Translations under genes and position numbers: made by a program
Part shown: positions 21,349-55,608 of the stretch, in pieces
How positions within the stretch are numbered: position 1 is the first letter of the stretch
Layout of the letters: every line of letters begins with the position of its first letter
Notes under the pieces: generated by a model
The model's database searches: none
What the model was told of the DNA's origin: nothing
Seen by the model: the letters and a program-made list of their open reading frames with translations, nothing else
NCBI RefSeq assembly: GCF_014303395.1
Contig: NZ_CP060298.1
Coordinates: forward strand, 4,049,001-4,113,000
Direction of reading: 5' to 3'
Origin: Nakamurella sp. PAMC28650
Lineage (GTDB): Bacteria; Actinomycetota; Actinomycetes; Mycobacteriales; Nakamurellaceae
DNA: 64,000 nucleotides

Positions 21349-23604
21349 CTAAACGCCGCTGGTGGTCTTGGCCACCTGCATCAGGAACTCCACGTTGCTC
21401 TTGGTCTTGCGCAGCCGGTCGAGCAGCAGTTCCAGCGCCTGCTGGGAATCCAGTGCCGACAGCACCCGGCGGAGCTTGACCGTGATCGCCAGTTCATCCG
21501 GCGAGAGCAGCAGGTCTTCCTTGCGGGTCGAGCTCTGATCGACGTCGATGGCCGGGAAGATCCTCTTGTCGGCGATCCGGCGGTCGAGCTTGAGCTCGGC
21601 GTTGCCGGTGCCCTTGAACTCCTCGAAGATCACCGTGTCCCCTGCTGAGCCGGTCTCGACCAGCGCCGAGGCGAAGATGGTGAGCGATCCACCGTTCTCG
21701 ATGTTCCGGGCCGCTCCGAGGAAACGCTTCGGCGGGAACAGCGCGGTGGAATCGACACCACCGGACAGGATCCGGCCGGACGCCGGGGCGGCCAGGTTGT
21801 AGGCCCGGCCGAGGCGGGTGATCGAATCCAGGAGCACGACTACGTCGCGGCCCATCTCGACGAGCCGCTTGGCCCGCTCGATGGACAGCTCGGCGACCAT
21901 CGTGTGGTCGGCCGGGGGCCGGTCGAAGGTGGAGGCGATGACCTCACCCTTCACCGAGCGCTGCATGTCGGTGACTTCTTCCGGACGCTCGTCGACCAGC
22001 ACGACCATGAGGTGGACCTCGGGGTTGTTGGTGGTGATCGCGTTTGCGATGGCCTGCAGGATCGAGGTCTTGCCGGCCTTCGGGGGCGACACGATCAGCG
22101 CACGCTGCCCCTTGCCCACTGGCATCACCAGATCGATGATGCGGGTGGTCAGGATGTGCGACTCGGTCTCCAGACGTAGCCGGTCGTTCGGATAGAGCGG
22201 AGTCAGCTTGGTGAACTCCGGTCGGTCCTTCGCGAGTTCCGGGTCCTGGCCGTTGACCGAGTCGAGCCGGACGAGCGCGTTGAACTTCTGCCTGGCAGCG
22301 GCACTCTCGCCCTCGCGGGGCGCACGGACGGCGCCGGTGACGGCGTCGCCACGGCGTAGCCCGTTCTTGCGGATTTGCGACAGCGAGACGTAGACGTCGT
22401 TCGGGCCGGACAGGTAGCCGGAGGTGCGGATGAAGGCGTAGGAGTCCAGTACGTCGACGATGCCGGCGACGGGCACCAGCACGTCGTCGTCCCGCACCTC
22501 GGTGTCGGTCGGCGCGTCGGCGAAGCGGTCGCGGGTGCGCCGGTTGCGATCGCGGAATCGACGACCACGCCGGCCGTCCTCGTCGCCGTCCAGGCCGCCG
22601 TTGCGATCCTGACCACCGTTACGATCCTGGCCGCCGTTGCGATCCTGGCCGCCGTTGCGATCCTGGCCGCCGTTGCGATCCTGGCCGCCGTTGCGATCCT
22701 GGCCGCCGTTGCGGTCCTGGCCCTGGCGGTTGCCGTCCTGACGGGTGTCCTTGCCGTTGCTGCGGGGGTTCTGCCCGTCGCGGTTCTGGTTGCCCTGGCT
22801 CTCACGGTTCTGCCCGTTCTGACCCTGCGCGGGCGGGCTGGCCTGAGCCTCCCGCGGAGCGTCCGCGGCCGCGGTCTGCCCGTCGTTGGTGTTGCTCTCG
22901 CCCCGACCGTCGCGGTCGCGGCGGTTCCGCCGGTTCCGGCGGCTGTTGCGGGGGCCGTCGTCGCCGTCGTAGGGCTGACGATCCTGACGATCGCCACCAC
23001 CGCCGTTGGACGGCCCTTCGTCCGGCGTACCGGCCGGTCCGTGATCGTTCGACGCATGGTCTTCGGACGGGTGCGCGGCGGCAGCCGGCGGGCGCTCGGC
23101 CGTCGGGCGCTCGGTCATCGGGGCCTGGGCCTGGGCGACAGGTGCCGCATCGACCGCGGAGGCGGGCGCCTGCGTGGTGGGCGCGCCTTCGGCGCGCCCC
23201 GCTGCACGCCGACGGGTCGTCCGCGGTGGCAGGTTGAGATCGAGCGACAGGGTCGCGCCCGACCCGTTGCCGTTGCCGGCCGACGAGGCATTGGCGGCCG
23301 ACGAGCCATTGGCGGGCGGCGCTGATGCTGCCGGGGATTCCGCACCGTTGGGGGTCGCGGCCTTCGGCTCGGCGCCGTTGGAGTCCCCCCTGGTCTGCGT
23401 GCTCCGGGTCTTGGGTGCGGCTGAATTCTGGTGGGAGGCGATGGCGGACACGAGGTCGCCCTTGCGCAGTCCCGAGGTGCCCTTGATGCCGAGCTGCGTG
23501 GCCATGGCCTTCAGATCGGCAAGCACCATGCCCGAGAGTCCTTCACCGCGGCGCACGCGCGACGCGGTGGTGGAGGAGACGGGCTGCTCCGTGGTTTCGG
23601 TCAC
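21349..23604 (-). CDS. rho: Transcription termination factor Rho with long inserted domain
   Basis: Rho is the hexameric RNA-dependent ATPase that terminates transcription. The 751-residue protein has a Rho_N helical domain ([15 protein letters not shown], about residues 26-60). A low-complexity insertion follows at about residues 70-370, rich in Asn, Gln, Arg, Asp and Gly. The S1-like RNA-binding domain starts near 374 ([22 protein letters not shown] in pieces), and the ATPase has P-loop SPPKAGKTS, then [16 protein letters not shown] and the C-terminal core. GTG 23604 is chosen because AGGAAGGA lies 5 nt upstream. Inserts of this type are known in actinobacterial Rho and add RNA contacts. 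The core is clearly intact. Confidence 0.97.
22595..22720 (-). repeat. Seven 18-bp in-frame repeats within rho
   Basis: Seven tandem 18-bp units encoding QDRNGG seven times, at about residues 295-336 of Rho. Units 3-6 are identical; unit 1 differs at its last base, unit 2 at several bases and unit 7 at one base. The copy number could vary among strains by slippage while keeping the frame. Confidence 0.9.
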
Positions 23605-29532: not shown

Positions 29533-30959
29533 CAGGTCTCCAGGAGCTGCAGATCGTCGTCGGTCTCACGGCGCAGCAGCTGACGGGAGGTTCCGTCGGC
29601 CACCGCGACCAGAGGCGGCCGGGGAAGCCGGTTGTAGTTGCTGGCCATCGCGTAGCAGTAGGCACCGGTTGCCGCCACCGCGATCAGGTCGCCCACCGCG
29701 AGGTCCGCAGGAAGATAGCAGTCCCGGACGACGATGTCGCCGCTCTCGCAGTGCTTGCCGACCACGCGGCATCGGGCGGCCGGTGCGGTGGACGATCTGG
29801 AGGCCAGCACCACGGTGTAGTCGGCGTCGTACAGAGCCGTCCGGATGTTGTCACTCATCCCTCCGTCGACCGAGACGTACCGCCGGACCACGCCGCCGTC
29901 GAGGTTGACGTCCTTGATCGTGCCGACCTCGTACACGGTCACCGTTCCGGGGCCGACGATGGCGCGGCCCGGTTCCACCGCGATGCGGGGGACGGCGAGC
30001 CCGGCGACCTGGCACTCCCGCTCGACGATCTCGGTCAGCGACTTGGCCATCGCATCCACCGGCGGCGGGGTATCCGCAGAGGTGTAGGCGATGCCCAACC
30101 CGCCGCCCAGATCCAGGGTGGTGATGGAAGCCGCCAACCGGGGGTGGTCCGCGATGACCGATTTCAGCAGCACCACCAGACGGTGGGCCGAGACCTCGAA
30201 TCCCGACGGGTCGAAGATCTGCGACCCGATGTGCGAATGCAGGCCGATCAGTTCCAGGCCGTGGCAGGCCACGATCCGCCGGACGCCCTCGGCGGCATCG
30301 CCACCCGCCAGCGAGAAGCCGAACTTCTGGTCCTCGTGGGCGGTGGCGATGAACTCGTGGGTGTGGGCCTCGACCCCGACCGTCACCCTGATCATCACCG
30401 GGATGCGGCGGGTGGAGCCGTTGACGGTGCCCGCCTCGAGGTTCACCCGCTCGGAAATCCCGGCCAGCCGGCCGATCTCGTCGAACGAGTCGATGACGAT
30501 GGCGCCGATCCCGGCCTCCACCGCCATCTCCAGTTCGTGCTGCGACTTGTTCGAGCCGTGCAGCGCGATCCGCTCGGGCGGGAATCCGGCGCGCAACGCC
30601 AGCCGGAGCTCGCCACCGGAGCACACATCGAGCGAAAGACCCTCCTGCGTCAGCCATTTCACGATGTGCGAAGACAGGAACGCCTTGGCCGCGTAGTGCA
30701 CGTCGGCAGCCGAGCCGAAGGCGTCGGCGAAGTCGTGGCACCGACTGCGGAAGTCCTGCTCGTCCATGGCCAGCAGGGGGGTGCCGTAGAGCGCGGCCAG
30801 ATCGCGGACGTCGTTGCCCGCCAGTGTCATCACGCCGTGGTCGCGTCGCGCACCGCGGGGCCACACGGCCGGGTCGAGGTCGTTCAGGTCGGCGGGCACC
30901 ACCGACGTGCGGTCCGCCGGGATCTCGCCGTGCCGTGGGCCGGCCGGATGTGCTCTCAT
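29529..30959 (-). CDS. lysA: Diaminopimelate decarboxylase
   Basis: PLP enzyme for the last step of lysine synthesis, 476 residues. The PLP Lys is K92 in HYAAKAFLSSH; GGELRLALRAGF, LGGGLGIAY, AVEPGRAIVG and the C-terminal CESGDIVVRDC (active-site Cys) and GAYCYAMASNYN follow. The first 45 residues are an extension before the family core. It starts the lysA-(small membrane gene)-hom-thrC-thrB unit, next to the ArgS-like gene, as in mycobacteria. Confidence 0.96.
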   Translation of the reverse strand: MRAHPAGPRHGEIPADRTSVVPADLNDLDPAVWPRGARRDHGVMTLAGNDVRDLAALYGTPLLAMDEQDFRSRCHDFADAFGSAADVHYAAKAFLSSHIVKWLTQEGLSLDVCSGGELRLALRAGFPPERIALHGSNKSQHELEMAVEAGIGAIVIDSFDEIGRLAGISERVNLEAGTVNGSTRRIPVMIRVTVGVEAHTHEFIATAHEDQKFGFSLAGGDAAEGVRRIVACHGLELIGLHSHIGSQIFDPSGFEVSAHRLVVLLKSVIADHPRLAASITTLDLGGGLGIAYTSADTPPPVDAMAKSLTEIVERECQVAGLAVPRIAVEPGRAIVGPGTVTVYEVGTIKDVNLDGGVVRRYVSVDGGMSDNIRTALYDADYTVVLASRSSTAPAARCRVVGKHCESGDIVVRDCYLPADLAVGDLIAVAATGAYCYAMASNYNRLPRPPLVAVADGTSRQLLRRETDDDLQLLETW

Positions 30960-30963
30960 GTCA

Positions 30964-31035
30964 AATCCCGGCTCTCTGTCGAATCCTGGCTCTGCGTTGA
31001 ATCCTGGCTGTGCGTTGATTCCTGGCTGTGCGTTG
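30964..31035 (-). repeat. Four 18-bp tandem copies between ArgS-like gene and lysA
   Basis: Four contiguous 18-bp units, consensus AATCCTGGCTGTGCGTTG, with units 2-4 differing at one or two bases and unit 1 more diverged. They occupy most of the 108-nt gap directly upstream of lysA. A fifth broken copy runs to about 31050. Confidence 0.8.
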
Positions 31036-31067
31036 ATTACTGCTGTGATTTGGCACCGTCGACGTGG

Positions 31068-46200: not shown

Positions 46201-47163
46201 GTGCTGGCCATCGTCGCCCCTGGACAGGGAGCTCAGAAGCCCGGAATGTTGATTCCCTGGCTGGAGGTTCCCGGGCTCTCCCCATTGGCGGCGACGTTCG
46301 CCGAGGCGGCCGGCATCGACCTGCCGCGCCTCGGCACCACAGCTGGCGCCGAGGAGATCAAGGACACCGCGGTGACGCAGCCGCTGGTCGTCGCCTCCGC
46401 CCTGCTGGCCGCGGCCGTCCTGCCACTTCCGCAGGACTTCGCCTGCGCCGGACATTCGGTCGGCGAACTCGCCGCCGCGGCCCTGGCCGGCATCATCGAC
46501 CCGAAGACCGCGGTCAGGGCCGCCGGCATCCGCGGTGCCGCCATGGGCCTGGCCTGCGCCCTGGCCCCGACGTCGATGTCCGCCGTCCTCGGCGGCGACA
46601 GCGACGTCGTCCTCGCCGCGCTCGACGCGCTGGACCTGGTGGGCGCCAACGTCAACGGCGGCGGTCAGATCGTGGCCGCCGGTACCACCGACGCCCTTGC
46701 CGCGCTCGCCGCGGATCCGCCCGCCGGGGCACGGATCATCCCGCTACCGGTGGCCGGGGCGTTCCACACCCGCTACATGGCGCCGGCGCAACAGGCGGTG
46801 GAGGACTTCCTGCGGGGTGTCACCGCGGTCGATCCGACCAGGCCGTTGCTGACGAACTCCGACGGGTCCGTCGTCCCCACCGGCCGCGCCTACCTGGATC
46901 TGCTGTCGGCCCAGGTGACCCGCCCGGTGCGCTGGGATGCCTGCATGGCCATGCTGTCCCGGCTCGGGGTGACGGGCGTGCTGGAGCTTCCCCCGGCCGG
47001 CACCCTGGTCGGGCTGGTCAAACGGGACCTGAAGGGGGTGGCCACGCTGGCCCTGAAGAGCCCCGATGACCTCGACAAGGCCGCGGCCTTCATCGCCGAA
47101 CACAGCACGGCAGCACCGACCAGCACCGCATCACCGTCGAGTCCAGTGAGGTCCCAGGTATGA
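46201..47163 (+). CDS. fabD: Malonyl-CoA:ACP transacylase
   Basis: Loads malonyl groups onto ACP. The 320-residue protein shows VAPGQGAQKPGM, the nucleophile CAGHSVGELAAAALAG (Ser), GAFHTRYMAPA (catalytic His) and NVNGGGQIV. GTG 46201 follows AAGGGC. Its stop overlaps fabH by 4 nt (ATGA). First gene of the fatty-acid synthesis operon, downstream of the FasR gene. Confidence 0.95.
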   Translation: MLAIVAPGQGAQKPGMLIPWLEVPGLSPLAATFAEAAGIDLPRLGTTAGAEEIKDTAVTQPLVVASALLAAAVLPLPQDFACAGHSVGELAAAALAGIIDPKTAVRAAGIRGAAMGLACALAPTSMSAVLGGDSDVVLAALDALDLVGANVNGGGQIVAAGTTDALAALAADPPAGARIIPLPVAGAFHTRYMAPAQQAVEDFLRGVTAVDPTRPLLTNSDGSVVPTGRAYLDLLSAQVTRPVRWDACMAMLSRLGVTGVLELPPAGTLVGLVKRDLKGVATLALKSPDDLDKAAAFIAEHSTAAPTSTASPSSPVRSQV

Positions 47164-48143
47164 GCGCGGTCCAGATTTCCCACCCGGCCACGAGGAACGG
47201 GTCGAAGATCGTCGGCCTCGGGCACTTCCGGCCGGAGCAGATCGTCACCAACGACGACCTGTCCAAGATCATGGAGACCAACGACGAGTGGATCCAGAGT
47301 CGCGTCGGCATCGCCGAGCGGCACGTCGCGGGCGATCAGGACACCGTCGCCTCGATGGGCGCCATCGCCGGCGGGAAGGCGCTGGCCGACGCGGGTCTCG
47401 AGCCGTCGGACATCGACACCGTCATCGTCGCGACCTGCACCACCGAGTCCCAGGTGCCGCACACGTCCACCCAGATCGCCCTGGCGCTGGACATCTCCGC
47501 TCCCGGCTCGTTCGACCTGAACGCGGCCTGCGCCGGGTTCTGCTACGCACTGGCCGCAGCCGACCACGCCATCCGGGCCGGCAGTGCCAGGAACGTCCTG
47601 GTGGTCGGCTCCGAGAAGCTCACCGCCTGGACCGATCCGGTCGACCGCGCGACGGCCATCATCTTCGCCGACGGCGCCGGAGCGGCCGTGGTCTCGGCGT
47701 CGGACGAACCGGGTATCGGCCCGGTCGCCTGGGGAAGCGACGAGCACCAGACCAGGGCCATCCGGATCGAGTCCCGTGATGCGAGCTTCATCCAGGAGGG
47801 CCAGGCGGTGTTCCGCTGGGCCACCACGGCCATCGCGCCGGTCGCGATCAGGGCGGTCGAGCTGGCCGGCCTGCAGCTTTCCGACATCGACGTCCTGGTG
47901 ACGCACCAGGCCAACCTGCGCATCGTCGAGTCCATCGCCAAGAAGCTGGTGGCCGCCGGCGCCAACCCGCAGATGCGGGTGGCGAAGGACATCGTCACCT
48001 CCGGCAACACGTCGTCGGCGTCGATCCCGATCGCCCTCGACCGGATGCGCCAGGCCGGCCACGTATCCCCCGGAGAAATCGTCCTGGCCGTCGGCTTCGG
48101 CGCCGGGCTCACCTACGCGGGCCAGGTCTTCCGCTGTCCGTGA
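47160..48143 (+). CDS. fabH: 3-oxoacyl-ACP synthase III
   Basis: Condenses acyl-CoA primer with malonyl-ACP to start chains. The 327-residue protein carries the Cys-His-Asn triad in LNAACAGFCYALAAADHA, VTHQANLRIVESI and TSGNTSSASIPIAL. The opening SKIVGLGHFRPEQIVTNDDL is typical. In actinobacteria the primer is often a branched or isobutyryl-CoA, but that is not visible here. Overlaps fabD; 142 nt before acpP. Confidence 0.96.
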   Translation: MSAVQISHPATRNGSKIVGLGHFRPEQIVTNDDLSKIMETNDEWIQSRVGIAERHVAGDQDTVASMGAIAGGKALADAGLEPSDIDTVIVATCTTESQVPHTSTQIALALDISAPGSFDLNAACAGFCYALAAADHAIRAGSARNVLVVGSEKLTAWTDPVDRATAIIFADGAGAAVVSASDEPGIGPVAWGSDEHQTRAIRIESRDASFIQEGQAVFRWATTAIAPVAIRAVELAGLQLSDIDVLVTHQANLRIVESIAKKLVAAGANPQMRVAKDIVTSGNTSSASIPIALDRMRQAGHVSPGEIVLAVGFGAGLTYAGQVFRCP

Positions 48144-48285
48144 GGCGATCCGCGGCGGGCCTGCGGCACGCGGAGGCCGCTGCGGCTGGAACACTGTGCC
48201 TGCGGTGCTCGCTGAGTTCGTCCGTGCAGCGCCAACTTCCTCCCGGGTCCCCGGGAAGAGGACATCACCACCGAAAGGAATCACC

Positions 48286-48528
48286 GTGAGCAACGAGGAC
48301 ACCCTCGCCGGCCTCGGCGAGATCGTCGAAGAGGTCGCCGGCGTCCCGGCTGCCGACGTCACCGCCGACAAGTCCTTCACCGACGACCTGGACATCGACT
48401 CGCTGTCGATGGTCGAGATCGCGGTGCAGGCCGAGGACAAGTTCGGTGTGAAGATCCCGGACGACGAGCTGGCCAAGCTCAAGACCGTTGGTGACGCCGT
48501 CACCTACATCGAGGCCAACAAGGTATGA
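48286..48528 (+). CDS. acpP: Acyl carrier protein
   Basis: An 80-residue ACP that carries growing chains on a phosphopantetheine arm. The Ser is in FTDDLDIDSLSMVEIAVQ (DSLS). GTG 48286 follows AAAGGAATCACC. The gene is in the fabD-fabH-acpP-fabF order, with 142 nt to the fabH stop. Confidence 0.97.
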   Translation: MSNEDTLAGLGEIVEEVAGVPAADVTADKSFTDDLDIDSLSMVEIAVQAEDKFGVKIPDDELAKLKTVGDAVTYIEANKV

Positions 48529-48628: not shown

Positions 48629-49852
48629 ATGAGCAACGACCGCGACGTCGTCGTCACCGGCATCGGCGCGACCACCCCCATCGGCGGAACTGCCCAGGAG
48701 ACCTGGCAGGCATTGCTGGACGGAGTCAGCGGGGTCGGTCCGCTGACCGACCCCAGGGTGGCGCAGTACGACCTGCCGGTCCGCATCGGTGCAGCTCTCA
48801 AGGTGGATCCGTCCGAGGTGCTCTCCCGCGTGGAGGCCCGTCGGCTGGATCGGAGCGAACAGGTCGCCCTGATCGCCGCCCGCGAGGCCTGGGCCGATGC
48901 CGGTGCTCCGGAGATGGATCCGGAGCGGCTCGGCGTCGTGGTCGGTACCGGAATCGGTGGAGCCGTCAGCCTGATGAACCAGGACGACCTCCTGGAGACG
49001 GAGGGGCTGCGGAAGGTCGCCGTCCTCACCGTCCCCATGTTGATGCCGAACGGACCGGCGTCCACGGTCGCCCTGTGGGTGAAGGCCCGCGGGGCGGTCC
49101 ACGCGCCCGTTTCCGCCTGCGCATCCGGTGCGGAGGCCCTGGCGTGGGCGTTCCGGCTGATCAAGTCCGGTGAGGTCGACGTGGTCATCGCCGGTGGCGC
49201 GGAGGCCTGCATCCACCCACTGCCGATCGCCGGGTTCTCGCAGATGCGGGCGATGAGCACCCGGAACGACGACCCCGAGACCGCCTCGCGCCCCTGGGAC
49301 GTCGATCGGGACGGGTTCGTGCTCGGTGAGGGCGCCGGAATGGTGGTCCTGGAGGACGCCGACCACGCGAGAGCCCGCGGCGCCAAAATCTACGGCAGGC
49401 TCGCCGGGGTGGGGATGTCCAACGACGCCTACCACGTCAGCGCCCCCGACCCGAACGGCAACGGCGCGGCCCGCGCCATCGGCAAGGCGCTCGTGTCAGC
49501 GGACATGTCGGCGTCCGAGATCGGCCACGTCAACGCCCATGCGACGTCGACGCCGGTCGGCGACATCCCGGAGGCCAACACGGCGGTGCAGATCTTCGGC
49601 GACCAGGTCGTGCTGACCGCGAACAAGTCGATGACGGGCCACATGCTCGGCGCAACCGGCGCCGTCGAGAGCATCGCCACCGTCCTGACGCTCAAGTACG
49701 GGATCATCCCCGGCACCCGCAACATCTTCAATCTCGACCCTGCGGTGCACGCCGACATCGCCACCAAGAACCGCGAGACCACGATTACGGCGGCCGTCAA
49801 CAACTCGTTCGGCTTCGGCGGTCACAACGTCGCCCTCGTGTTCACCAAATAG
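48629..49852 (+). CDS. fabF: 3-oxoacyl-ACP synthase II
   Basis: Elongating condensing enzyme, 407 residues. Catalytic Cys in VSACASGAEALAWAF, His residues in NAHATSTPVGD and ANKSMTGHMLGATGAVE, and the Phe-gate GFGGHN near the end. ATG 48629 begins the usual NDRDVVVTGIGATTP. Ends just ahead of the hairpin-repeat array and accD, so it may share a transcript with accD. Confidence 0.95.
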   Translation: MSNDRDVVVTGIGATTPIGGTAQETWQALLDGVSGVGPLTDPRVAQYDLPVRIGAALKVDPSEVLSRVEARRLDRSEQVALIAAREAWADAGAPEMDPERLGVVVGTGIGGAVSLMNQDDLLETEGLRKVAVLTVPMLMPNGPASTVALWVKARGAVHAPVSACASGAEALAWAFRLIKSGEVDVVIAGGAEACIHPLPIAGFSQMRAMSTRNDDPETASRPWDVDRDGFVLGEGAGMVVLEDADHARARGAKIYGRLAGVGMSNDAYHVSAPDPNGNGAARAIGKALVSADMSASEIGHVNAHATSTPVGDIPEANTAVQIFGDQVVLTANKSMTGHMLGATGAVESIATVLTLKYGIIPGTRNIFNLDPAVHADIATKNRETTITAAVNNSFGFGGHNVALVFTK

Positions 49853-49870
49853 CCCCTCCCGCACCGATCG

Positions 49871-50061
49871 TCGCCTCCCGGCGAACAAGTCATCGCCTCC
49901 CGGCGAACAAGTCATCGCCTCCCGGCGAACAAGTCATCGCCTCCCGGCGAACAAGTCATCGCCTCCCGGCGAACAAGTCATCGCCTCCCGGCGAACAAGT
50001 CATCGCCTCCCGGCGAACAAGTCATCGCCGTCCGGCGAGGGATTCATCGCCTCCCGGCGAA
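49871..50061 (+). repeat. Array of nine short hairpin repeats between fabF and accD
   Basis: Seven perfect 22-bp units (49872-50025), an eighth diverged unit (50026-50047) and a partial ninth. Each unit contains a self-complementary TCGCC/GGCGA stem around the loop TCCC, followed by an 8-nt spacer ACAAGTCA. In the eighth unit the loop is GTCC and the spacer is GGGATTCA, but the 5-bp stem is unchanged. It lies in the 230-nt fabF-accD gap on the coding side of the mRNA. Confidence 0.85.
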
Positions 50062-50082
50062 GCACAGATGTCAGGAGTTGCT

Positions 50083-51513
50083 GTGAGCATGACCGCTGAA
50101 CAGCCGGCCCAGGCGGCCGGGCCCGGCCCGCGAAAGCTCGACTTCCGCGAGCCCGAGGTCAGGTTGGCCAAGTTGCTCGACCCGGAGACGGTGGTCCCGC
50201 TGCATGCCACCGACACCTCCGGTGTCTCGGTCGTCCGGGGGCGGATCGACGGGTCCAAGGTGATCGCCTACTGCACAGACGCCACCCGGATGGGCGGGGC
50301 CATGGGCTCGGCCGGTTGCCGTCACATCGTGGACGCCATCGACGCTGCGATCCGGGAACGCATCCCGGTGATCGGCATCTGGCACTCCGGCGGCGCGCGC
50401 CTGGCCGAGGGTGTAGAGGCGCTGGACGGTGTCGGGCAGGTGTTCGCGGCGATGGTCAGGGCCTCGGGTCGCGTCCCGCAGATCTCGGTGGTCCTCGGCC
50501 CGGCCGCCGGGGGTGCGGCCTACGGTCCGGCGCTGACCGATGTCGTCATCATGTCGCCCGAAGGCAGGGTGTTCGTGACCGGGCCTGACGTGGTCCGGTC
50601 GGTGACCGGCGAGCAGGTCGACATGGAAGCGCTCGGCGGACCGTCTGCGCACGGCCGCAAATCCGGTGTGGTGCACATCGTGTCGGATTCGGAGGAGGAC
50701 GCCTACGTCCGCGCCCGCCGCGTCTTCGCGCTGTTCTCGCGGCCGGGGATCGCGGGCGTCGCCGGCATGGCCGACGATCCGGAACTGGGCAACGTGCTGC
50801 CCGAGCAGCGCAACCGGGCCTACAACGTCCGGCCGGTGATCGACCGCATCCTGGACGAGCCGATGGAGGAGCTCCAGGCCAAGTGGGCGCCGAACATCGT
50901 CATCGGGCTGGGTCGGCTGGCCGGTCGCAGCGTCGGGGTGGTGGCGAACAATCCGATTCGCCTTGGCGGCTGCCTGGACTCCACCTCGGCCGAGAAGGCC
51001 TCACGGTTCGTCCGGATGTGTGACGCCTTCGGCATCCCCCTGCTGGTCATCGTCGACGTCCCCGGGTATCTGCCGGGTGTCGGACAGGAGTGGGACGGCG
51101 TCGTGCGGCGGGGGGCGAAGCTGTTGCACGCCTTCGCTGAGGCAGTGGTCCCCCGCGTCACCCTGGTCACCAGGAAGGCGTACGGCGGGGCCTACATCGC
51201 GATGAACTCCAAAGCCCTCGGCGCGACGGCGGTCTTCGCGTGGCCCGATGCCGAGATCGCGGTGATGGGGGCGAAGGCCGCCGTCGGGATCCTGCACAAG
51301 CGCAAGCTGGCCGCCGCTCCGGACGACGAGCGCGAGGCTCTGCACGCGGCGCTGGCGATCGAGCACGAGAAGGTCGCGGGCGGTGTCAATCGCGCAATCG
51401 AACTCGGTGTCGTCGACGAGGTCATCACGCCGGCCGAGACCCGCCGTCGCGTCGCAGAGGCGCTCGCCTCCGCACCGGCCGGCCGCGGAGCGCACAGCAA
51501 CATCCCGCTGTAG
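50083..51513 (+). CDS. accD6: Acyl-CoA carboxylase carboxyltransferase (AccD type)
   Basis: Carboxyltransferase that makes malonyl-CoA from acetyl-CoA and biotinylated carrier, feeding FabD. About 476 residues with both CT halves in one chain: GIWHSGGARLAEGVEAL, VVLGPAAGGAAYGPALTD, then FVTGPDVVRSVTGEQVD, and in the second half NNPIRLGGCLDSTSAEKASRF and RKAYGGAYIAMNSKALGAT. GTG 50083 is chosen because AGGAG lies 5 nt upstream; ATG 50068 and ATG 50089 are in frame. Mycobacterial accD6 also ends the fab cluster. The biotin carrier subunit is elsewhere. Confidence 0.95.
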   Translation: MSMTAEQPAQAAGPGPRKLDFREPEVRLAKLLDPETVVPLHATDTSGVSVVRGRIDGSKVIAYCTDATRMGGAMGSAGCRHIVDAIDAAIRERIPVIGIWHSGGARLAEGVEALDGVGQVFAAMVRASGRVPQISVVLGPAAGGAAYGPALTDVVIMSPEGRVFVTGPDVVRSVTGEQVDMEALGGPSAHGRKSGVVHIVSDSEEDAYVRARRVFALFSRPGIAGVAGMADDPELGNVLPEQRNRAYNVRPVIDRILDEPMEELQAKWAPNIVIGLGRLAGRSVGVVANNPIRLGGCLDSTSAEKASRFVRMCDAFGIPLLVIVDVPGYLPGVGQEWDGVVRRGAKLLHAFAEAVVPRVTLVTRKAYGGAYIAMNSKALGATAVFAWPDAEIAVMGAKAAVGILHKRKLAAAPDDEREALHAALAIEHEKVAGGVNRAIELGVVDEVITPAETRRRVAEALASAPAGRGAHSNIPL

Positions 51514-55321: not shown

Positions 55322-55530
55322 CGCGCTCCCTCCGCACCGGGACCTGCCCCTGCGAACAGCCAGGACGGGATCGGTGGCAAGCTATCGACAACGGCGGCCG
55401 GATCTTCAGAACCCATGGGCACGAACAACTATCCGGAGGCTCGCTGAGCGCCCGCTGCCATTCGGAGTGTCCGTCAGCCTAGTGCTGACGGGTAGGGGTT
55501 CGGGTGGTCCGACACGCCGACCGCCACCGG

Positions 55531-55608
55531 GTGCGCGATGGACACCGAGTGCGATGGACACCGAGTGCGATGGACACCGGGTGCGATGGACACCGGGTGG
55601 GCGATGGA
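55531..55608 (-). repeat. Four 16-18-bp tandem copies, GTGCGATGGACACCGA
   Basis: One 18-bp variant copy (55531-55548), three 16-bp copies (55549-55564, 55565-55580, 55581-55596) and a partial fifth to 55608. The array lies between the GGDEF gene stop and the acyltransferase start on the minus strand, about 210 nt upstream of the latter. Confidence 0.8.

What the first reader, a model, noticed from the sequence alone, without database searches (positions are those of the whole stretch)
49871..50061. Array of nine micro-hairpins between fabF and accD
Seven exact 22-bp copies, one diverged and one partial copy fill the gap between two fatty-acid genes. Each unit holds a TCGCC/GGCGA stem with a 4-nt loop. 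In the diverged eighth unit the loop and spacer change but the stem is intact, so the stem looks like the selected feature. The copies could act as an RNA structure that tunes accD relative to fabF, a stacked protein-binding site, or a variable-number repeat altering malonyl-CoA supply.
Basis: partly seen in the sequence, partly recalled or inferred. Interest (0 to 1): 0.62.

Follow-up and report, generated by a model that had tools for sequence, protein, structure and literature searches.

The report
Species-specific tandem repeat before accD
Between two fatty-acid genes of an actinobacterium a 22-letter DNA word has been copied about nine times in a row, much as dozens of unrelated short words have been elsewhere in the same genome; its small hairpins look incidental, so this is most likely an ordinary, recently formed repeat rather than a switch.

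Summary
The array is real: 22 bp x 8.7 at 49871-50061, eight [14-nt hairpin + 8-nt spacer] units plus a ninth hairpin, taking 191 of the 230 nt between the fabF stop and the likely accD start (GTG 50083). Units 1-7 are identical; unit 8 has six changes, none in the stem.

It is private to this genome: no other copy in it within 3 mismatches, no significant match in 16 genus mates, pattern absent from 393 other class genomes. Thirteen genus mates have different fabF-accD spacers of 2-233 nt.

Unrelated arrays are common here: 53 in 464 kb, 31 called intergenic, stems not enriched. Shuffled units hold so long a stem 8% of the time; with repetition kept, 56 of 500 permuted arrays fold as well.

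Best reading: a species-specific minisatellite, passively carried. Open lead: 5 of 7 long fabF-accD spacers of genus mates fold unusually well against 28 of 130 control spacers, a small post hoc test.

The parts
48629..49852 (+). fabF (beta-ketoacyl-ACP synthase II), last gene before the spacer; stop TAG 49850-49852
   Evidence: NCBIfam NF005589 E 1.6e-143, above its cut-off; start from a home-made caller
49853..49870 (+). 18-nt 5' part of the spacer, before the array
   Evidence: sequence
49871..50024 (+). units 1-7, identical 22-bp copies TCGCCTCCCGGCGAACAAGTCA
   Evidence: 7 exact copies and no other match with up to 3 mismatches in the genome
50025..50046 (+). unit 8, six changes at unit positions 6, 7, 15, 16, 17, 19; stem intact
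50047..50060 (+). ninth hairpin; the following 8 nt match the unit spacer at 3 of 8 positions
50073..50077 (+). likely ribosome-binding site AGGAG of accD
   Evidence: TCAGGAG also precedes the GTG in the closest relative (L003)
50083..51513 (+). accD (acyl-CoA carboxylase carboxyltransferase, AccD5/AccD6-like by recall), likely start GTG
46285..48528 (+). upstream fatty-acid genes fabD, fabH and acpP, same strand
   Evidence: (TIGR00128, below its cut-off; NF006829 and NF002147, above theirs), coordinates

Best explanation
A species-specific minisatellite (VNTR-type tandem repeat). A 22-bp segment that happened to hold a 5-bp inverted repeat was duplicated in the poorly constrained fabF-accD spacer, most likely after this species split from its nearest sequenced relative, and then amplified by slipped-strand replication or unequal recombination. 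Units 1-7 are the recent expansion; unit 8 and the ninth hairpin are older copies at the downstream edge. It is probably transcribed as part of a fab-accD message, where it lengthens the spacer and adds weak (about -7 kcal/mol) hairpins, with at most a small effect on accD and no dedicated function. Shown: the array, its uniqueness in the sets searched, the different spacers of relatives, the abundance of other arrays. Inferred: the mechanism and time of amplification, co-transcription, and lack of function.
For: One locus in its genome (no other site within 3 mismatches); no significant match in 16 of 16 genus mates (best E 0.015 over 19 nt); tandem pattern absent from 60 of 60 other relatives and 393 of 393 other genomes of a class sample. 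Spacers of 13 genus mates are 2-233 nt and show no array, so the gap tolerates change. The same genome holds many unrelated arrays: 53 non-overlapping with score 70 or more in 464 kb, 31 called intergenic; 11 per 100 kb in the 400-kb sample against 5 and 7 in 200-kb samples of two relatives. Arrays called coding have periods divisible by 3 in 19 of 22 cases, arrays called intergenic in 9 of 31, as expected if slippage is kept where it does no harm. The stem is not unusual: P 0.079 for this unit; 4 of 27 testable intergenic arrays have P below 0.1, this one included. Repeat-preserving fold null: 56 of 500 as low. No sigma-70-like promoter and no stem with U tract in 49400-50400; no Rfam match over the array.
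Against: The array starts and ends at the hairpin, and unit 8 and the ninth copy keep the stem while their spacers differ. It is the highest-scoring array of the 464 kb examined. Long fabF-accD spacers of genus mates are structured more often than control spacers. Strain-level copy-number variation was not seen, only suggested by the seven identical copies.
Confidence: 0.72

Rival explanations
1. Intercistronic RNA element: the nine short hairpins act together, after the fabF stop, as a partial terminator or as a barrier to 3'-5' RNA decay, setting accD expression below fabF, with strength depending on copy number.
For: Nine stems of about -6.8 kcal/mol each, the first 18 nt after the fabF stop. 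Five of seven long fabF-accD spacers of genus mates have fold z below -2 against 28 of 130 control co-directional spacers (Fisher P 0.009). Local stem-loops of -25 to -41 kcal/mol, matched by 0 or 1 of 20 shuffles, start 1-36 nt after the stop in L003, L007, L010, L011 and L015. PMC8355165 (start of abstract and passages seen) argues that clusters of short hairpins terminate transcription and cites better termination by two tandem hairpins after M. smegmatis gyrA.
Against: The array's fold is not beyond a repeat-preserving null (56 of 500); its best local stem-loop is matched by 2 of 20 shuffles. Six of 13 genus mates have spacers of 45 nt or less. No U-tract terminator. Seven long spacers from other families of the order show no trend (mean z 0.32). 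The genus test is post hoc and small, and L003 gave z -1.93 in one run, which would make it 4 of 7.
Confidence: 0.15
2. Contingency locus: copy number changes often between cells and tunes accD translation or transcription, as is proposed for promoter tandem repeats in M. tuberculosis (PMC12817950).
For: Seven identical copies suggest recent expansion; the array ends about 12 nt before the SD; precedent of a 58-bp tandem repeat 12 bp upstream of lpdA in M. tuberculosis that varies between strains (PMC12817950, abstract and one section read).
Against: No second strain of the species was available, so variation is unseen; no promoter-like site found; relatives show no array here.
Confidence: 0.1
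3. Stacked binding sites of a DNA-binding protein recognising TCGCC-N4-GGCGA.
For: Inverted repeat at a regular 22-bp spacing, about two helical turns; 18 other sites in the genome against 10 for the reversed pattern, 6 of them outside called genes.
Against: The excess over the control is small, none of the 18 has the same loop, and 12 lie in called genes.
Confidence: 0.03

Closest known systems
Intergenic minisatellites / VNTR loci of actinobacteria (MIRU-VNTR, promoter tandem repeats of M. tuberculosis)
   Same: Head-to-tail near-identical copies in a gap between genes, close upstream of a gene.
   Different: 22-bp unit, against 54-58 bp for the cysG and lpdA promoter repeats (PMC12817950, section read); single locus, whereas MIRUs are a dispersed family (recalled); no evidence yet of strain variation or effect.
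REP/BIME palindromic intergenic elements
   Same: Short GC-rich hairpins in an intercistronic stretch (REP features recalled).
   Different: REPs are dispersed; this unit has one locus, and no match to the REP-type transposase family PF01797 was found in this genome.
Hairpin-cluster intrinsic terminators (PMC8355165, passages seen)
   Same: Several short hairpins less than 15 nt apart after a stop codon.
   Different: Here between two genes of one apparent operon, with no mapped 3' end.

Membership tests
VNTR / minisatellite | Tandem head-to-tail near-identical copies | tested here: met
   8.7 copies, 94% matches
VNTR / minisatellite | Copy number differs between strains of the species | not testable with these tools
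   the genome sets hold one genome per species; no second strain was available
VNTR / minisatellite | Locus not conserved between species | tested here: met
   no array in the genus mates
REP/BIME element | Dispersed in many copies over the genome | tested here: not met
   one locus only
CRISPR array | Repeats separated by unique spacers | tested here: not met
   the 8-nt spacers of units 1-7 are identical
Intrinsic terminator | Stem followed by a U tract | tested here: not met
   0 found in 49400-50400
Hairpin-cluster terminator | Transcript ends map to the cluster | not testable with these tools
   no RNA data
Operator array of a regulator | Same motif upstream of other genes | tested here: inconclusive
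   18 other sites against 10 control, 12 in called genes, 6 outside, none with the same loop; the 6 were not studied further

The most novel reading that the evidence does not exclude
The fabF-accD junction of this genus needs, whenever it is long, a folded RNA element to set the FabF:AccD ratio. Each lineage has built its own, unrelated in sequence, and this species has built it from a tandem array of micro-hairpins whose copy number makes the setting adjustable.
Probability: 0.1. Interest if true: 0.55.

Novelty: new member of a known kind. Interest (0 to 1): 0.2.

Why it matters
It shows that an eye-catching hairpin array can be explained by repetition of a single chance stem once a repeat-preserving control is used, in a genome where tandem arrays are common. 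If the rival reading held, it would be a simple test case for how lineages replace intercistronic RNA structures and for tuning of malonyl-CoA supply by repeat number.

Tried and rejected
Plasmid origin: the 211-bp query gave no match in 72,556 plasmid records. Same architecture elsewhere: the pattern TCGCCTCCCGGCGA-N8-TCGCC gave 13 stretches in genome contigs, 9 of them in Pseudoflavitalea rhizosphaerae and one each in 4 MAGs; in the 60 nt before and 90 nt after each of these and of the single viral hit I saw no 22-bp array. The two-hairpin pattern with free loop and spacer was found only in this genome among 61. Known RNA: the only Rfam match with E up to 5 in 49400-50400 is far below its threshold and lies over fabF. 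Operator regulon: little support. Coding array: the period is not a multiple of 3, and the minus-strand ORF 49496-49915 that enters the array is antisense to fabF; taken as spurious. Dropped rows: fold z-scores of L006, L012 and L013, because the automatic start lay inside the gene; their spacers read by eye are 7, 8 and 8 nt. G004, G009 and G011 showed no orthologous AccD among the hits and gave no spacer, so 13 of 16 genus mates were compared. Fold z-scores move with the number of shuffles: L003 gave -2.76 (100), -2.15 (300) and -1.93 (40). The 130 control spacers include this array and the fabF-accD spacers of the two relatives sampled. Gene calls come from a simple codon-usage caller that I wrote and are approximate. 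The second dispersed motif tested in passing was rare (2 sites in this genome, 4 in G001).

Full report
What is there. The array is real and as placed. In hairpin register: 18 nt after the fabF stop come seven identical TCGCCTCCCGGCGA-ACAAGTCA units, an eighth TCGCCGTCCGGCGA-GGGATTCA, a ninth hairpin without the spacer, then AGCACAGATGTCAGGAGTTGCT and GTG. The likely accD start is GTG 50083, preceded by AGGAG, a pattern also seen in the nearest relative. The spacer is 230 nt and the array takes 191. Genes on the same strand are a regulator with weak CdaR-family matches, fabD, fabH, acpP, fabF and accD.

Where it is. The window lies in a 5,629,850-bp single-contig genome. One genus mate, G002, has exactly the length published for Nakamurella multipartita, 6,060,298 bp (PMC3035273, passages seen; contig length), so the genus is probably Nakamurella; the species itself was not identified.

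Who else has it. The unit occurs seven times exactly and nowhere else within three mismatches in its own genome. BLAST of the spacer finds nothing significant in the 16 other genomes of the genus (best E 0.015). The tandem pattern is absent from 60 of 60 other relatives (loop and spacer free) and from 393 of 393 other class members sampled (exact hairpin). An AccD relative is found in 61 of 61 genomes; for the 13 of 16 genus mates with a clear orthologue next to fabF the spacer is 2, 7, 8, 8, 21, 45, 56, 84, 128, 144, 145, 187 and 233 nt. Tandem Repeats Finder (minimum score 40) finds nothing there in these 13 except a 2.2-copy, 21-bp repeat at the beginning of accD in L010. By eye, likeness to the nearest relative within the spacer is confined to TCAGGAG and the start.

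Is the hairpin special? A 5-bp stem with a loop of 3-10 occurs in 7.9% of 20,000 shuffles of the unit. Plain dinucleotide shuffles give z -3.41 for the transcript strand (0 of 200 as low) and -2.12 for the other (8 of 200), but they destroy the repetition that multiplies any stem. When the positions of the unit are permuted identically in all copies, 56 of 500 arrays fold at least as well (z -1.20). Each hairpin is worth about -6.8 kcal/mol, nearly matched by a pairing between neighbouring units of -6.3. The stem-sparing changes of unit 8 are suggestive only: 0.012 under independence, 3 of 22 under rotation, one unit.

How ordinary is it? In 464 kb (20 evenly spread 20-kb stretches plus the window) there are 53 non-overlapping arrays with score at least 70; 31 fall outside called genes; of the 27 with units of 10 bp or more, 4 have a stem with P below 0.1, this one included, about what chance gives, median P 0.85. 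This array is the largest by score. The density is 11 per 100 kb here and 5 and 7 in two relatives. This is the profile of a genome in which short tandem duplications are common and are kept where harmless (inference).

What remains open. Among the 7 genus mates whose fabF-accD spacer is 56 nt or longer, 5 have fold z below -2 with 300 shuffles: L003 -2.15, L009 -2.06, L010 -3.13, L011 -2.49, L015 -2.77; L007 -1.33 and L005 -0.05 do not. Control co-directional spacers of 80-300 nt reach z below -2 in 14 of 58 in the own genome (printed as the fraction 0.24, array included), 5 of 36 and 9 of 36 in two relatives: 28 of 130. Fisher P is 0.009, chosen after looking, with controls from three genomes only and fewer shuffles (40). 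Local stem-loops matched by at most 1 of 20 shuffles sit within 36 nt of the stop in L003, L007, L010, L011 and L015; in L009 and L005 the best one is matched by 17 and 9 of 20. Seven long spacers of other families in the order show no trend (mean z 0.32). So a folded element after fabF may be a recurrent feature of this genus, and the micro-hairpin array could stand in for it; but six of 13 genus mates have 45 nt of spacer or less.

How it most likely works. Formation by slippage or unequal recombination, recent expansion of units 1-7, older copies downstream (inferred from the pattern of divergence). Probably transcribed with fabF and accD, since simple consensus scans found no promoter or U-tract terminator; such scans do not cover all actinobacterial promoters. 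Its effect on accD is expected to be small. Precedent that such arrays can matter exists in M. tuberculosis, where promoter tandem repeats vary in copy number (PMC12817950, abstract and one section read), and hairpin clusters have been proposed as terminators (PMC8355165, passages seen). I made no search aimed at this very locus in print; some searches were on the genus, on accD6 and on tandem repeats and terminators in general.

Noticed in passing
G000 (55 sites) and G001 (58 sites); examples L122-L129; none in the window: The 15-mer GGCGTGGATCAACTT is dispersed in this genome and its nearest relative and absent from the 15 other genus genomes (control pattern 0). In G001 17 pairs stand inverted 67 bp apart; in G000 four pairs stand 86 or 105 bp apart, forming an interspersed element with inverted ends of about 82 bp or more. 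No PF01797 REP-type transposase was found in either genome.
   Followed up: partly
L036, L038-L040, L043, L045-L048 (Pseudoflavitalea rhizosphaerae): A dispersed palindromic family holding TCGCCTCCCGGCGA between larger inverted arms, in 9 fetched stretches, apparently unrelated to this array.
   Followed up: no
L003, L007, L010, L011, L015, within 36 nt after the fabF stop: Strong stem-loops of different sequence in the fabF-accD spacer of genus mates, matched by at most 1 of 20 shuffles.
   Followed up: partly
window 22589-22722, 30952-31047, 55525-55608: Other tandem arrays of 16- to 18-bp units in the window, among more; the last two lie largely outside genes called by my simple caller.
   Followed up: no
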